From positions 910,808-974,807 of the forward strand of contig BCKL01000001.1 in assembly GCA_001600635.1 (NCBI GenBank): 64,000 bases of DNA, read 5' to 3'. Both the position numbers and the translations under genes were made by a program. The notes under the pieces were generated by a model. The model was not told the DNA's origin, ran no database searches, and saw nothing but the letters and a program-made list of their open reading frames with translations. Each line of letters starts with the position of its first letter. Position 1 is the first letter of the stretch. This DNA comes from Leucosporidium creatinivorum (taxonomy: Eukaryota > Basidiomycota > Microbotryomycetes > Leucosporidiales > Leucosporidiaceae). Below are positions 27,021-33,600 of this stretch, one piece after another.

Positions 27021-28633
27021 TCATTCCTCCTCGCTCCCACTCGCACTCTGCTCCTCCTCCTCCTCCTCACTCCCTTCTTCCTCCCCTGCCCCCTGACCTC
27101 CCATACTCACTCTCCTACTCTCCTCCAAAGTATCAGGCCTCGTCGTCCCATCATCATTCTCGATGACCCTCCTCCCCTGGGTGAAGAAGAGCTTGACGTC
27201 CCGGTTCGAGGTGGCCGAGATGGAGTACGAGTTGCCGCGCGGGACGAAGAAGGTCGCGCCGCTGTGGGTGGGGGAGGGGAGGGAGGGGGAGCGTTAGTGA
27301 GGAGGAATGGGAGAAGAGAGGGAAAAAGAGAGATGGACGTACGGCCCAATGGCGAAGCGCGTGCGGTGGACCACGACAGAGACGGAGCCTTCGATGCAGT
27401 AGAACATCTGTTTCAATCTCTCTCCTCGTCAGCGATCGCTCCTTTCTCCCTCCTCCCCTCGAGAGCCAGAACTTACATAGCTATTATCCTTTGCCGGCTT
27501 GGTGGGCTTCTCTGCGCCCGCCGGGATCTGAAGGATACCGCCCGCGAGGTAATCGAGCTCGGTGTAGATCTTCTGAAACATGAACTTGTTGTTGTACGTC
27601 GGGCGCGGGTCGACCATCTTGGCCGTGAAGGCGATGCCTGTTCGATGTTCAACGCAGCGAATCCAGCCTCGTCAACGCCGAGCTCGCGAGAGAGAGACAG
27701 AGAGAGAGAGAGGGAGAAGGAGAAAGAAAAAGGAAAAAAACGCACGTCTCGACACCTCAGCATTCCCCTCCCAACTCCACACAATCCCATCCGGATCCGT
27801 CGCATCATCCACTCCCTCCTCCTCCGGCGGCGCCTGCTCACTCTTAACCCTAACCCCCCTACTCGCACTCCTCGGTCCTCCTCCTCCTCCTCCTCCTCCA
27901 CTCTTCTTCTTGCCCCCAAAAGGCTCGGCCGGCGCCCTGGGAATCCGCACGACCTCCTCGATGGCAATGCCCGATTGCCGCCGCTTGTAGACGACCCGTT
28001 CGTTGCGCCAGTATTCGAGCGGTTGCAGACGTTGCCGCGAGGAGCGGCGGACTGTGCCAGGTGTGGTGTGGTGAGCAGGGGTGGGGAGAGGAAGGATGGA
28101 GGAGGTGAGGTGAGGCGAGCGAGCGGGGGAGAGGAGATGAGAAAGTGGGTGAGGGTGAGGTGGGGAAGGGTTAGCTCTCGTTCGGCGCCTCCCTCCCTCC
28201 GCCTCCAGCTCGACGATCTCGGCCCCAGCCAAAGCCAGAGAAAAGCGAACTCACCGCCCTCTTCATCCTCCTCCACCTCCCTCCGTCTCTTCCTCGCCTT
28301 GACCTGCTTACTACTAGCACTCGCACTCACGACCGTCTCGCCCCTCTTCCTCGCCTCGGCTTGCGCCTTCCTCGCTGCCGTCGCAGCCGCCGTCTTGCTG
28401 CTCTTGCTTGCTCCTCCTCCTCCTCCTGCTTTCTGCGGTGAAGCAGAGGCTCGACCCTCGCCCTTGCCCTTGCCCTTGGACTTGGACTTGGAGGCGACGG
28501 GCTCCTCCACCTCTTCGTCCTCCGAGCCGGATGCCTGCTGCTCGTCCTGCTCCATACTCTGCTCCCCCTCCATATCATACTCTCTTCCCGCTCCATCGTC
28601 GCCAAAGTACTCCTCCTCCTCCTCCTCCTCTTC

Positions 28634-28668
<35 letters not shown>

Positions 28669-30333
28669 CCCCCCCCTCCTCCTCCTCCCCCCCCCCCCCC
28701 CCCTCCCCCCCCTCCTCCTCCTCCTCCTCCTCCTCCTCCTCCTCCTCCTCCTCCTCCTCCTCGCTCTCTTCCCGTTCAACCGCCTTTCCCTTTCCCTTGC
28801 GATCCCCCGCCCCTCCCCCTCCCCCTCCAATCTTGACCTCCTTGCCCGTCTTGCCCAACCGCACTAACGGCGTTCCTCCTACTGAATCTCGTCGACTCGA
28901 GCGGTTGGACGAGGTCGACGCGGCCGAGAGGTTGGACAGGCGCCCGCGGCGGTTCGTGGGCTTCGAGGACGCGGCGGCGGCGGCGGGTTTGGTGGTCGAC
29001 TTCTTGTTGGCCCCAGCGCGAGGGAGGGGTTCGTCGTCCTCTGACTCGGCATCCTCCTCCTCCTCCTCGGACGAAACGACCGCTTTCCGTCCTTTGCCCT
29101 TGGCCGAAGCAGGGCCCGGGCCCTTCTTTCCACCGAGCATCGCCAGCCCTCCCGCATTGCTCTTCCTAGCGCCGCCTTGCGACGACTGGTGGCTGGCCCC
29201 CATAATCTTCCTCACCACCTCCTCCTCATCGTCATCCGACTCTTCCTCGTCGTCGGAAGAAGAAGCAATGTGTATCGGTCGACTCGCGCCGTTCGGCTTG
29301 GAGGAGGAGGTTTTGGCGGTGGTCGAGTGGCGGAGGGAGGAGGGGGGAAGACGAGAGTTGGTGGTGGGGTTGGAACGTTGGTAGGCGGAGGGGGTTAGGG
29401 AGGAGCCTGGTTTGGTTTTGGTCGGAGGGGAGCGAGGGGGTTAGCGAGGGTCCGGCGCCGAGAGAGCAGAGTAGGAGAGAGAGGGAGAGCGAGAGAGAGA
29501 TGACAACGCCGACGCACCATCATCCAACTGCATATCCTCGGTATAATCCCCCTCCTCATACTCCTCCCCTCCTCCCCCACCCATCTCCTCCCCATCATTC
29601 GGGTTATAATACCCCTGCTCTTCCTCCTCCTCTTCCTCGTAGACAGGCACGCTCTTCTTACTAGCACTCTTCTTCACCGTACTCTTGACGCTCCTCCCTC
29701 CCGCTCCCCCCGCCGGCGACGAGGCGGCTCCTCCTCCTTTGGCCGAGGGCGACGAGTGAAAGAAGTTGGAAACGCCTTCATAGCCTTCGTCGTCGCGTTC
29801 GACGGGGGCGACGCGGACGCCGGTTTTCCTGTGGTGTGGTTGTGGTAGCGGGAGGTAGTAGCCAGGGGAGATGATGAGCGAGCGTTCCCACCCATCCAAA
29901 CAAAGCCGACGCGTTGATCGAGTCGCCCAACTCACCTGCCCCGTTCCCCCAATTCGGCATACAAGTCGGGTCGATTCCTGTTCCCTCCTCCTTGAGAGCC
30001 ATTCATAGCCTGAGAAGAGCGCTGCGAGCCGCCAGGGTTCTGCTTGGACGCGACGCGTTGGTCCTCTTCCTCCTCATCATCGTCGTCGTCGTGGTTAAAG
30101 TAGGCGGAAGGACGTTCATTCCCTGCCGAGTCGCGGGGTACGTTGGAAGGGGGGCGGACGCCGGTGATTCTGTTTGAAAGCGGGAGAGGGAGGGGAGGGG
30201 AGGAGATGAGTGTTTGGACGGGTGTGAGGCGGGTGATAGAGTGCACTAGAACCTACCTGCCCTGATTGCCAATATCGTTGTATTTCTGTTGCCTCCCTCT
30301 CCCTTGACGGTCTCTGTCTGGTGCTGGAGCCAT
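27021..30333 (-). CDS. MIF2: Inner kinetochore protein CENP-C (Mif2)
   Basis: About eight exons encode roughly 850 residues. Near the C-terminus RRSSRQRLQPLEYWRNERVVY is the CENP-C motif that binds the CENP-A nucleosome. It is followed by the Mif2-type cupin dimerisation fold (NNKFMFQKIYTELDYLAGGI, MFYCIEGSVSVVV, GATFFVPRGNSYSI). The N-terminus carries two copies of the conserved motif that in yeast Mif2 contacts the Mtw1 complex: KYNDIGNQGRITGVR with AYFN, and LYAELGERGRKTGVRV with SNFF. Each copy is interrupted by a phase-2 intron at the same Arg codon. The middle is acidic, with poly-Glu/poly-Gly tracts from a repeat at 28609-28762. The start MAPAPDRDRQ is 290 bp from divergent VMA1. Confidence 0.95.
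27693..27720. repeat. AG dinucleotide repeat in a CENP-C intron
   Basis: A GA-rich microsatellite in the intron between the CENP-C-motif exon and the cupin exons. It reads as a polypyrimidine tract on the transcribed strand and lies where splicing signals sit. Confidence 0.7.
28609..28762. repeat. GAG/CTC trinucleotide repeat with poly-C runs inside CENP-C
   Basis: A run of CTC triplets is broken by two long C-runs near 28,657-28,676 and 28,688-28,703. On the coding (minus) strand it gives a poly-Glu tract with embedded poly-Gly. Such C-runs are prone to slippage and to sequencing error, so the exact length is unreliable although the frame is kept. Confidence 0.9.
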
Positions 30334-30622
30334 GGAGATGGAGAGGGGAGATGAGAGCGAGGTAGAAGTTGAGTGTTGGCTTGGAGGGAGAGAGGGAGAG
30401 GTGTTGATGAGGTGCAGCGAAGTGAGTAGAGTAGGCTGAGTGATGTAGGTCGATATAGCCCTACAAGCGAGTCGAGACGAGATTAAGTAGACGAGGTAAT
30501 GGACAGAGTACAAGCTGGGGCAAGTCCCCGGCGTCCAAGTCGTCGACTCGGCCAAGCTGAGCGGGAGAGGGCAGCTTGTACTCTCGCTTCTACCACTTTC
30601 ATCTTACTACAGCTCGCCCATC
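30334..30622. promoter_or_regulatory. Divergent promoter region, CENP-C / VMA1
   Basis: 289 bp between the start codons of the CENP-C and V-ATPase subunit A genes. It must carry both promoters and 5' UTRs. No motif is assigned. Confidence 0.55.
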
Positions 30623-33600
30623 ATGGTATGTTCTTCTGTAGCCCTGTAACCCTACAGCTTACTGACTCTCATCTCATCTCATCTCATCTCATCTCATCTC
30701 TCTCCCTCGTGCGCCCGCTCGCTCCTCATCGTCGTCTCCCCGTCTCTCGTCGCTCTCTGTGCTCTGGCTGGCTGGCTCTGCACCATGACAGGCTGGCGCA
30801 ATGGATAACGCAAAGAAGACTATTAGGATTCAGGGTCAGTCCTCGCTCTTACAACTCTGTACCCTCATTCGATGGCTGACCCACTCACTCTCACTCTCAC
30901 TCCCACTCGTCTCTCTCTCTCTTCTCTTCTCCTACAGATGAGGATCGCGAGTCCAAGTTTGGAAGTGTCTTCTCCGTCTCAGGACCCGTCGTCGTAGCGT
31001 CAGTCTCACTCACTACAGCTGAGCAGCAGCCTCTCCTCTCCCCTACGTGCCCCTCGCTGACATCTCTCCCTCTGGCTTCCCCACCTCCTGCACCATGCTC
31101 AACACTCGCTACTCGATACTCTATTCTACACCACAACCAACAGGGAGAAGATGGCCGGTGCTGCCATGTACGAGCTCGTCCGCGTCGGTCATGACGAGTG
31201 CGTCTCTAGTCTCCCGCTTCTCTGCTTTCGCACAGCCTACTTCCCTATAGCAACCTCCGCCCTTTATCTCTCCATTCCCCATCCTACACGACCCCCGCCT
31301 CTGCTCTCCCTCCAACCGCCCCTCCGCTCTCGCCAAAACCCCCCCACTCACCCACCTCCCTCTCCCACAGACTCGTCGGCGAGATCATCCGTATCGACGC
31401 CGACAAGGCCACCATTCAAGTCTATGAAGAGACCTCGGGCATGACGATTGGAGATCCAGTCTTGAGGACGGGCAAGCCCTTGTCGGTCGAGCTTGGGCCT
31501 GGTGAGTTGTGTTCGTTTCGTCTTGGGGCTCGAGGGCTGAGGGGAGGGAGGCTAGAGGGATAGATGGGAGTACGTAGAGGAGGAGGAGAGGAGGAGGAAC
31601 GAGGCATCACCCCCCGAGTAGCGAAAGCCGAGCTAAACCCTCACTCCCTCCCTCCCTTTCTCGCGCCGAACAGGCCTCATGTCCAACATCTACGACGGCA
31701 TCCAACGTCCCCTCAAATCCATCGCCGACCTCTCTCAATCCATCTACATCCCCCGCGGCATCAACACCACCGCGTTGGACCGTCAGATCAAGTGGGACTT
31801 CACCCCCGTCAACTTCAAGGTCGGCGACCACATTTCGGGCGGCGACATCTTTGGGCAGGTGTATGAGAACTCGCTCGTGAATGAGCATAAGATTATGATG
31901 AACCCGAGGGGGATGGGCACAATCACCCATATCGCAGAGAAGGGGTCTTACGCCGTCGACGTTCGTCCTCTCTCTCTCTCTCTCTCTCTCCCCCTCTTCT
32001 CTCCACTCGCTAACCCCCTCTCTCTCTCTCCACCAACGACCAACAGGACATCGTCCTCGAGACCGAGTTTGAAGGCAAGACGACCAAGCATACGATGCTC
32101 CAGCTCTGGCCCGTCCGCGCCCCTCGCCCTACGGGAGAGAAGCAGCAGGCGGACCACCCCCTCCTCACGGGACAGCGGGTGCTCGATTCCCTCTTCCCTT
32201 GTGTGCAGGGTGGAACGACGGCCATTCCGGGCGCTTTTGGCTGTGGAAAGGTGAGTTTTGAGAGGAGCGCCGCGCCGAGGGAGGAGGAGGAAAGAAGCGA
32301 AGCCGAGATGGGAAGCTCATTAACCCCCCTGCTCGCTCGCTTCGATAGACCGTCATCTCCCAGGCCGTGTCCAAGTTCTCCAACTCGGATATCATCATCT
32401 ACGTCGGCTGCGGCGAGCGCGGAAACGAGATGGCCGAGGGTTAGTTCAGTTTCCTCTTTGCCCTCCTCGTGCCCCTGCCCCCCCCNNNNNNNNNNNNNNN
32501 NNNNNNNNNNNNNNNCGCTGCGCTGCGCTGACTCGCGCCCTCCTCCTCTCCCTCACCCCCGCTTCAAACGACAGTCCTCATGGAATTCCCCGAGCTCTCG
32601 ATCGACGTCAACGGCAAACAAGAGCCCATCATGAAGCGCACCACCCTCGTCGCCAACACGTCCAACATGCCCGTCGCCGCGCGCGAGGCGTCCATCTACA
32701 CGGGCATCACCCTGTCCGAGTACTTCCGCGACCAGGGCAAGAATGTAGCCATGATGGCGGATTCTACCAGTCGGTGGGCCGAGGCGCTGAGGGAGATTTC
32801 GGGACGTCTCGCTGAGATGCCGGCCGATTCGGGATACCCGGCTTACCTTGGGGCTAAGCTGGCGTCCTTCTATGAGAGGGCGGGAAAGGCTACTTGTCTG
32901 GGATCGCCGGATCGTACGGGAACGGTGTCGATTATTGGAGCGTGAGTTGGGCGGGTCGCTTCGATGAAGAGGAAGGAAGGGTCGAGTCGAGGAGCTGACT
33001 TCTCTCTCTCGTAATTGACACACAGCGTCTCCCCTCCCGGAGGAGATTTCTCCGACCCCGTCACCTCCGCCACCCTCGGTATCGTTCAGGTCTTCTGGGG
33101 ACTCGACAAGTGAGTTTCGGTCGGTCGGGTCGTTCGAGGTTCGGCGTTGGAGGGAGACAGAGACGACGAAGCTGAACCTCGACCCCCTCTTCTTTCTTCC
33201 TTCACCGCACAACAGGAAGCTCGCGCAGAGGAAACATTTCCCCTCGGTCAACTGGAACGTCTCCTACTCCAAGTAGTGCGTCTGGCTGCTCCGCTTTTTC
33301 CTTCTCCCTCCCTCCCGCTAACCCTGTCCCTCCTCCCTCCCACCACAGCACCCGCGTCCTCCAACCCTACTACGAGGCGACCGAGCCCGACTTCCTCCAC
33401 TACCGCAACACGGCCAAGCAGATTCTGCAAAAGGAGGACGAGCTCGCCGAGATTGTCCAACTCGTCGGCAAGAGCTCGCTCGGCGAGGGGGATAAGGTCA
33501 CCCTCGATGTGGCTAGGTTGATCAAGGAGGACTTTTTGCAGCAGAATGGTATCTCGGTGTATGATCGCTACTGTCCTTTCTATAAGACTGTGCGTTGCGT

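What the first reader, a model, noticed from the sequence alone, without database searches (positions are those of the whole stretch)
29741..30333. Duplicated Mtw1-binding motif in CENP-C, on a symmetric exon
Two copies of the Mif2 N-terminal motif occur: KYNDIGNQGRITGVR and LYAELGERGRKTGVRV, each followed by an aromatic pair (AYFN, SNFF). Each is split by a phase-2 intron at exactly the same Arg codon, and the exon between (29936-30169, 234 nt) is symmetric. In yeast Mif2 the single motif begins near residue 1 and ends RKTGI, and it binds the Mtw1 (MIND) complex. Two such sites in one CENP-C could recruit two outer-kinetochore complexes per molecule, so this looks like an exon duplication with a mechanistic reading.
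Basis: partly seen in the sequence, partly recalled or inferred. Interest (0 to 1): 0.75.

Follow-up and report, generated by a model that had tools for sequence, protein, structure and literature searches.

The report
Kinetochore protein with doubled docking motif
In this yeast and in many of its rust-related relatives, the centromere protein CENP-C carries two copies of the short motif that in other fungi anchors one chromosome-pulling complex, so each CENP-C may be able to hold two such complexes instead of one.

Summary
The gene (minus strand, 30333-27021) encodes an 848-aa CENP-C/Mif2 in a yeast close to Leucosporidium. It has two Mif2 N-terminal motifs (residues about 14-52 and 92-131), each split by a phase-2 intron in the same Arg codon. 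The copies are homologous beyond chance. A profile made only from copy 2 covers copy 1 in 28 of 28 two-motif Microbotryomycete rows. The pair is old: 28 of 32 Microbotryomycete rows, 5 of 5 named Pucciniales and the one Cystobasidium have two motifs; none of 121 mainly Agaricomycete rows or 11 ascomycete-like rows does. Both copies are conserved far above the linker. Best reading: an ancient tandem duplication of the Mtw1c (MIND)-docking motif in Pucciniomycotina. Copy 2 is canonical. Copy 1 has diverged but keeps the essential Arg, and in this species RxxG, so two MIND complexes per CENP-C are plausible but untested. In 20 of 28 rows copy 1 reads RTTN, so it may be repurposed there. CCAN loss is not the explanation here: CENP-L, CENP-N and a CENP-T histone fold match above cut-off. 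My searches listed no printed description of the pair.

The parts
27021..30333 (-). CENP-C/Mif2 gene, 8 coding exons, 848 aa (30333-30257, 30169-29936, 29828-29518, 29406-28255, 28051-27746, 27637-27477, 27407-27343, 27261-27021)
   Evidence: spliced model with GT-AG introns; Pfam CENP-C_C 87.5 bits and Mif2_N in two stretches; 92% identity over residues 625-805 to Leucosporidium creatinivorum
30257..30294 (-). copy 1, 5' part (residues 14-26, up to the first two bases of Arg26) in exon 1
30170..30256 (-). intron 1, phase 2, inside the Arg26 codon
30091..30169 (-). copy 1, 3' part (rest of Arg26 to residue 52) in exon 2
29974..30090 (-). acidic/polar linker between the copies (residues 53-91), poorly conserved
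   Evidence: mean column identity 0.293 against 0.726 and 0.577 for the copies in 28 rows
29936..29973 (-). copy 2, 5' part (residues 92-104, up to the first two bases of Arg104) in exon 2
29829..29935 (-). intron 2, phase 2, inside the Arg104 codon
   Evidence: hints of the same boundary in two relatives
29747..29828 (-). copy 2, 3' part (rest of Arg104 to residue 131) in exon 3
   Evidence: Pfam Mif2_N 32.6 bits alone; an 8-row Pucciniomycotina copy-2 profile matches K. lactis Mif2 of PDB 5T59 at E 1.1e-6
27987..28049 (-). CENP-C motif RRSSRQRLQPLEYWRNERVVY (motif name recalled)
   Evidence: sequence read directly
27177..27584 (-). C-terminal cupin (CENP-C_C, residues 712-797), spread over exons 6-8
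   Evidence: Pfam

Best explanation
This is the CENP-C/Mif2 of a Leucosporidium-like basidiomycete yeast, with a tandem pair of Mtw1c (MIND/Mis12 complex)-docking motifs at its N terminus. Shown by sequence: the two motifs are homologous copies, interrupted by an intron at the same codon, and both are conserved in most sampled Microbotryomycete rows and in rusts. Inferred: the pair arose by tandem duplication of a block that held the motif and its intron, probably before Microbotryomycetes and rusts split. Copy 2 is the canonical docking site. Copy 1 docks a second MIND complex through the same Mtw1-Nnf1 head, because it keeps the essential Arg, the RxxG (RITG) and the downstream acidic-aromatic segment. 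The linker of 39 residues lets the two complexes sit side by side, so one CENP-C can hold two MIND complexes and a cupin dimer four.
For: Two motifs, same split Arg codon, same phase. Homology beyond shuffles. A copy-2-only profile covers copy 1 in 28 of 28 two-motif Microbotryomycete rows (worst E 0.00076 with the database set to 234 proteins). Two motifs in 28 of 32 Microbotryomycete rows, 5 of 5 named Pucciniales, 2 of 3 unnamed rust-like rows (the third is cut off inside copy 1) and 1 of 1 Cystobasidium; none in 121 mainly Agaricomycete rows (112 with one, 9 with none), 60 other rows of one search (28 with one, 32 with none), 11 ascomycete-like rows (one each) or 1 Smittium (one). Column identity: copy 1 0.726, copy 2 0.577, linker 0.293, after 0.190. 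Copy-2 profile matches Mif2 as crystallised on the Mtw1-Nnf1 head (5T59) at E 1.1e-6. In budding yeast the Arg of RxxG is needed for binding, and Mif2 and Ame1 motifs bind separate Mtw1c molecules (PMC7360964, passages). Mis12 and Dsn1/MIS13 match over cut-off in the same genome.
Against: No binding, stoichiometry, expression or splicing was measured. Copy 1 alone is below Pfam's cut-off (19.1 of 23.5 bits), and so are 3 of 7 copy-1 pieces of relatives (18.4, 15.4, 20.3). The copy-1 profile reaches 5T59 only at 13.8 bits, E 0.41, in the same register, behind 22 artefact matches. Copy 1 lacks the Gly of RxxG in 20 of 28 rows. Two Microbotryomycetes (Pseudohyphozyma P0013, Meredithblackwellia P0031) have only a copy-2-like motif. 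Nnf1 and Mis14 were not detected in the genome (six-frame, exon by exon, so weak evidence).
Confidence: 0.55

Rival explanations
1. Copy 1 is a real, conserved paralogue of the motif but no longer docks Mtw1c. It binds another partner, or acts as a regulatory decoy (for instance holding CENP-C closed until CENP-A is met), while copy 2 alone docks MIND.
For: Copy 1 reads RTTN, not RxxG, in 20 of 28 rows yet is the best conserved of the N-terminal segments measured (0.726). Its own shared features (PP, RDSAGxE) are not in the yeast motif. Its match to the 5T59 Mif2 chain is insignificant. Budding-yeast Mif2 is auto-inhibited (PMC7360964, abstract and passages).
Against: In this species, in two Microbotryum, in three unplaced Microbotryomycete strains (JL201, NB124-2, JL221), in two Sporobolomyces and in 7 of 7 rust or rust-like rows with a whole copy 1, copy 1 keeps the Arg and the Gly. 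Of 7 copy-1 pieces of relatives, 4 pass the Pfam cut-off on their own (Microbotryum 26.1, S. salmoneus 27.0, Puccinia 27.8, Phakopsora 24.9).
Confidence: 0.3
2. Both copies dock Mtw1c but are redundant: only one is occupied per chain, and the spare raises local concentration or buffers loss of one site.
For: In budding yeast the Mif2 N-terminal motif is itself dispensable in otherwise wild-type cells (PMC7360964, passage). The two species with one motif (P0013, P0031) keep a copy-2-like motif, if their models are complete.
Against: Conservation of both copies across classes is more than mere redundancy usually keeps (inference). The linker (residues 53-91) is long enough for two complexes (inference).
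Confidence: 0.1
3. The second motif compensates for loss of other linkers (CENP-T, CENP-U), which is frequent in Basidiomycota.
For: Most CCAN proteins are lost in 23 of 31 basidiomycete orders (PMC7794384, section 6 read). CENP-U was not detected here, though that search rang in no control.
Against: This genome has CENP-L (76.4 bits), CENP-N (36.9 bits) and a CENP-T histone-fold exon (33.6 and 35.1 bits, cut-off 28.1, over positions 41-76 of 108; three archaeal controls rang below cut-off and CENP-S matches the same stretch at 18.2 bits, below its cut-off). Agaricomycotina, where CCAN loss is placed early, show one motif.
Confidence: 0.04
4. Gene-model or chance artefact: one of the motifs is not translated, or the likeness is fortuitous.
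For: No transcript evidence was available.
Against: Shuffle test, independent profiles, and the same two motifs in the deposited proteins of many species.
Confidence: 0.01

Closest known systems
Mif2/CENP-C N-terminal Mtw1c-binding motif of budding yeasts (PDB 5T59, K. lactis Mif2 on the Mtw1-Nnf1 head)
   Same: Same layout Y...G...RxTG....D...E....FF in both copies; copy-2 profile matches 5T59 chain C at E 1.1e-6; the Arg needed for binding is kept in both copies
   Different: The budding-yeast rows seen have one copy at residues 1-37; here there are two, each split by an intron in the essential Arg codon, with a poorly conserved linker between
Ame1/CENP-U N-terminal RxxG motif: the second Mtw1c receptor of budding yeast (PMC7360964)
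   Same: Gives the kinetochore two Mtw1c receptor motifs that compete for one site and so hold separate Mtw1c molecules
   Different: There the two motifs are on two proteins; here they are on one chain. PMC13065467 (section 12, part 1) models the Ame1 site as mainly distinct from the Mif2 site with a small shared surface
Human CENP-T, which carries several outer-kinetochore docking sites (one MIS12:NDC80 and two NDC80; PMC5241120 abstract)
   Same: One linear receptor that recruits more than one outer-kinetochore complex
   Different: In that abstract human CENP-C recruits a single MIS12:NDC80 complex; here the multiplicity would be on CENP-C and for MIND itself
Exon duplications in grass CENP-C (PMC549713, passages)
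   Same: Tandem duplication of coding exons within a CENP-C gene
   Different: In grasses these are exons 9-12 in or after the poorly conserved middle, gained and lost repeatedly, in places under positive selection; here it is a conserved N-terminal docking motif

Membership tests
CENP-C/Mif2 | C-terminal cupin (CENP-C_C) | tested here: met
   87.5 bits against a cut-off of 29
CENP-C/Mif2 | CENP-C motif with conserved Arg and Trp | tested here: met
   RRSSRQRLQPLEYWRNERVVY read directly
CENP-C/Mif2 | Mif2_N domain above Pfam cut-off | tested here: met
   26.9 bits for the whole protein, two stretches, cut-off 23.5
CENP-C/Mif2 | Location at centromeres, CENP-A nucleosome binding | not testable with these tools
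   needs ChIP or binding assay
Mtw1c (MIND)-docking motif, copy 2 | RxxG with the essential Arg | tested here: met
   RKTG in 28 of 28 two-motif Microbotryomycete rows
Mtw1c (MIND)-docking motif, copy 2 | Sequence match to Mif2 in complex with Mtw1-Nnf1 | tested here: met
   5T59_C E 1.1e-6
Mtw1c (MIND)-docking motif, copy 1 | RxxG with the essential Arg | tested here: met
   RITG in this species; across the 28 rows Arg in 28, Gly in 8, Asn in 20
Mtw1c (MIND)-docking motif, copy 1 | Sequence match to Mif2 in complex with Mtw1-Nnf1 | tested here: inconclusive
   5T59_C same register, 13.8 bits, E 0.41; Pfam 19.1 bits alone, cut-off 23.5
Mtw1c (MIND)-docking motif, both copies | Direct binding to the Mtw1-Nnf1 head | not testable with these tools
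   no complex prediction or assay available here
Tandem intragenic duplication | Homologous copies with an intron at the same codon and phase | tested here: met
Tandem intragenic duplication | Same intron positions in relatives | tested here: inconclusive
   no fungal DNA of relatives at hand; hints only: a partial Sporobolomyces blumeae protein (P0006) starts exactly at the Lys after the copy-2 Arg, and a Puccinia sorghi model (P0213) has 8 extra residues exactly there, as a misplaced splice would give
Multi-receptor kinetochore linker (CENP-T-like logic) | More than one outer complex held per chain | not testable with these tools
   stoichiometry needs reconstitution

The most novel reading that the evidence does not exclude
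CENP-C of Pucciniomycotina is an outer-kinetochore receptor of switchable valency. Full-length mRNA gives two MIND docks per chain (four per cupin dimer). Because both introns cut the same Arg codon in the same phase, skipping exon 2 joins the 5' half of copy 1 to the 3' half of copy 2 in frame and gives one intact composite dock: the hypothetical joint scores 33.2 bits against Mif2_N, against 32.6 and 19.1 for the two copies alone. The cell could thus choose one or two MIND complexes per CENP-C by splicing. No skipped product was seen in any row.
Probability: 0.07. Interest if true: 0.85.

Novelty: new variant of a known kind. Interest (0 to 1): 0.6.

Why it matters
How many outer-kinetochore complexes each inner-kinetochore molecule can hold sets how much force a centromere can bear. 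In the human reconstitution CENP-C recruits a single MIS12:NDC80 complex (PMC5241120, abstract), and budding yeast spreads its two Mtw1c motifs over Mif2 and Ame1. A fungal lineage with two motifs on one CENP-C would be a natural experiment in kinetochore valency, testable with peptides and a laboratory yeast. The change of copy 1 from RxxG to RTTN in 20 of 28 rows also offers a case of a docking motif being altered while kept under strong constraint.

Tried and rejected
CCAN loss as the driver: rejected for this species. CENP-U and CENP-I gave nothing, but those searches rang in no control genome and are no evidence of absence. CENP-Q gave only matches below cut-off (6, best 24.7 of 28.5 bits; five controls rang too, below cut-off). 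A genome-wide Mif2_N search did not recover the window's own copies, presumably because each is split by an intron; its single weak hit elsewhere (19.7 bits, E 0.0216, below cut-off, contig C32) was not followed.

A gene tree of the C-terminal part (34 rows) and a tree of the 40-residue motifs (38 rows) were too poorly resolved to prove one origin of the pair or to place the two single-motif species. In the motif tree the 8 Microbotryomycete copy-1 rows form one weakly supported group (83/74), rust copy 1 is a separate, unplaced group, and the copy-1 label needs two changes. Profile scores favour orthology for the rusts (7 of 7 two-motif rust or rust-like rows score higher with the Microbotryomycete copy-1 profile than with copy 2 for their first motif) but not for Cystobasidium (11.5 against 24.8 bits).

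The copy-1 profile against PDB sequences gave designed Pizza proteins at E as low as 5.8e-7. The best two, whose alignments were shown, are sums of six repeat matches of about 4 bits each, so I discarded this group as artefact. A profile that mixed yeast and basidiomycete motifs (A2) matched 5T59 by construction and is not used as evidence.

The first two were scanned again with the right letters and only those scores are reported; the third does not enter any number given.

Full report
WHAT IS THERE. The stretch lies at the 5' end of a gene on the minus strand. A hand-built model with eight coding exons (30333-30257, 30169-29936, 29828-29518, 29406-28255, 28051-27746, 27637-27477, 27407-27343, 27261-27021; all introns GT...AG) gives 848 residues. 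Pfam finds the CENP-C cupin (87.5 bits) and Mif2_N in two stretches. The nearest protein is from Leucosporidium creatinivorum, 92% identical over residues 625-805, so the window comes from a closely related basidiomycete yeast. Its genome is 27.7 Mb in 63 contigs.

THE PAIR. Copy 1 reads QKYNDIGNQGRITGVRPPSNVPRDSAGNERPSAYF and copy 2 reads DLYAELGERGRKTGVRVAPVERDDEGYEGVSNFF. Their local alignment scores 60 against a shuffle mean of 20.1 (sd 4.2, 0 of 20,000 as high); the best stretch after residue 135 scores 30. Alone, copy 2 scores 32.6 bits with Mif2_N and copy 1 scores 19.1, under the 23.5 cut-off. Each intron falls after the second base of the Arg codon of GRxTG. If two introns landed independently inside two aligned motifs of about 120 nt, the same position would be hit about once in 120 (rough estimate).

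HOW IT AROSE. Exon 2 contains the second half of copy 1, the linker and the first half of copy 2. It is therefore not a copy of another exon. The simplest history is a gene with one motif split by one intron, followed by tandem duplication of a block that spans the motif and its intron, with break points in coding (or 5' untranslated) sequence. That makes exon 2 symmetric by necessity. No fungal DNA outside this genome was at hand, so intron sharing could not be tested directly. Two protein rows hint at it: the partial Sporobolomyces blumeae protein P0006 begins exactly at the Lys after the copy-2 Arg, where exon 3 begins here, and the Puccinia sorghi model P0213 carries eight extra residues exactly between that Arg and Lys, as a misplaced splice would give.

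HOW OLD AND HOW WIDE. Three protein searches returned 233 proteins that were scanned, with the window's own, by motif profiles made from copy 1, copy 2 and Agaricomycete motifs. Two motifs: 28 of 32 Microbotryomycete rows (window included), 5 of 5 named Pucciniales, 2 of 3 unnamed rust-like rows, 1 of 1 Cystobasidium. One or none: 121 of 121 rows P0032-P0152 (mainly Agaricomycetes, some unnamed; 112 one, 9 none), 60 of 60 further rows of one search (28 one, 32 none, many of them fragments), 11 of 11 ascomycete-like rows (one each), 1 of 1 Smittium (one). Rows are not species: Rhodotorula toruloides and Puccinia striiformis appear twice. Of the four Microbotryomycete rows without two, P0001 and P0006 are models that lack the N terminus, and P0013 (Pseudohyphozyma) and P0031 (Meredithblackwellia) have one motif that looks like copy 2. 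The third rust-like row (P0193) starts inside copy 1. One search listed only the best 120 of 221 matches, and one search scored only the 7,988 candidates sharing most words. Ustilaginomycotina, Mixia and Agaricostilbomycetes were not sampled knowingly, and the one Atractiella row (P0178, 277 aa) has no motif and probably no N terminus.

ONE ORIGIN OR SEVERAL. In 7 of 7 two-motif rust or rust-like rows the first motif scores higher with the Microbotryomycete copy-1 profile (21.7-28.9 bits) than with copy 2 (at most 9.4, or no match), and the second motif is best with copy 2 (20.4-46.7). In Cystobasidium both motifs prefer the copy-2 profile. The motif tree does not resolve the question, nor does the C-terminal gene tree. 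A single origin before the split of rusts and Microbotryomycetes is likely but not proven.

CONSTRAINT. In 28 aligned two-motif rows the mean column identity is 0.726 for copy 1, 0.577 for copy 2, 0.293 for the linker and 0.190 for the stretch after copy 2; the 13 residues before copy 1 are also conserved (0.688). Copy 2 reads RKTG in 28 of 28. Copy 1 reads RITG in 6, RTTG in 2 and RTTN in 20. Spacing between the two Arg residues ranges from 78 to 133 residues. Of seven copy-1 pieces of relatives given to Pfam, four pass the Mif2_N cut-off alone (26.1, 27.0, 27.8, 24.9 bits) and three do not (18.4, 15.4, 20.3).

WHAT IS KNOWN OF THE MOTIF. In PMC7360964 (passages read) Mif2 and Ame1 share RxxG; changing the Arg (Arg11 in Mif2, Arg10 in Ame1) abolishes binding to the Mtw1-Nnf1 heterodimer; the two N termini compete and sit on separate Mtw1c molecules; and Mif2 residues 1-35 can replace the Ame1 N terminus. 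PMC13065467 (section 12, part 1) gives a dissociation constant of 0.98 uM for Mif2 1-38 with the phosphomimetic complex, none detectable with the auto-inhibited one, and names 5T59 as the Mif2-head structure. A profile of Pucciniomycotina copy 2 (8 rows) finds 5T59 chain C at E 1.1e-6. A profile of copy 1 (9 rows) aligns in the same register but at E 0.41. So copy 2 is the canonical dock, and copy 1 is a diverged relative that in this species still has the Arg and Gly of RxxG.

SURROUNDINGS. The genome carries Mis12 (56.2 bits) and Dsn1/MIS13 (27.9 bits, cut-off 23.5). Nnf1 and Mis14 were not detected by the exon-wise six-frame search, which is weak evidence since short exons escape it. CENP-L, CENP-N and a CENP-T histone-fold exon match over cut-off, so the doubling is not a stand-in for a lost CCAN here, although most CCAN proteins are lost in 23 of 31 basidiomycete orders (PMC7794384, section 6).

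MECHANISM, WITH STEPS MARKED. Shown by sequence: two homologous motifs, conserved, in a CENP-C by domain content. From published work on yeast: such a motif holds one Mtw1c through head 1, and two such motifs bind separate complexes. Inferred: the linker lets two MIND complexes dock side by side, doubling outer-kinetochore load per CENP-C, and the cupin dimer (dimerisation recalled) would make four sites. Also inferred: in rows with RTTN copy 1 may have shifted affinity or partner. Not excluded: skipping of exon 2 would fuse the outer halves into one intact composite motif (33.2 bits), while retention of either intron stops translation at once after the Arg.

NOVELTY. Full-text searches for two Mtw1c/Mis12 motifs in CENP-C, for Pucciniomycotina, Puccinia or Rhodotorula CENP-C, and for exon duplication or skipping listed no paper whose title or shown abstract describes the pair; only the top rows of each search were shown. 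The library holds only openly licensed PMC papers, and supplementary files could not be read. Grass CENP-C genes have exon duplications of another region (PMC549713, passages). I file it as a new variant of a known kind.

Noticed in passing
28610-28770: Exon 4 of the CENP-C gene holds a CCT repeat with C-runs (28657-28676, 28687-28703) coding a poly-Glu/poly-Gly tract; several frames stay open there and L. creatinivorum (P0001) has a far shorter tract, so its length may be polymorphic or misassembled.
   Followed up: partly
32486-32515: A run of exactly 30 N lies inside what looks like an intron of the neighbouring plus-strand gene (putative start 30623; by recall the V-ATPase catalytic subunit A).
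   Followed up: no
P0001 (Leucosporidium creatinivorum CENP-C, 483 aa): The deposited model of the closest species starts inside the equivalent of exon 4 and so lacks both docking motifs; probably an annotation error.
   Followed up: partly
Copy 1 in Rhodotorula, Rhodosporidiobolus and some Sporobolomyces proteins: Copy 1 changed RxxG to RTTN in 20 of 28 rows while remaining highly conserved; Sporobolomyces salmoneus and S. phaffii keep RTTG and carry a two-residue insertion.
   Followed up: partly
30334-30622: CENP-C and the neighbouring plus-strand gene are divergent with about 290 bases between putative start codons, so they may share a promoter region.
   Followed up: no
L002:1177-1803 (G000 contig C6, about 75475): A CENP-T C-terminal histone-fold exon (35.1 bits): this lineage keeps CCAN parts that 23 of 31 basidiomycete orders are reported to have lost.
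   Followed up: partly
P0213 (Puccinia sorghi) and P0006 (Sporobolomyces blumeae, partial): Model oddities sit exactly at the copy-2 Arg/Lys junction (an 8-residue insert; a start at Lys), hinting that the intron there is shared across the subphylum.
   Followed up: partly
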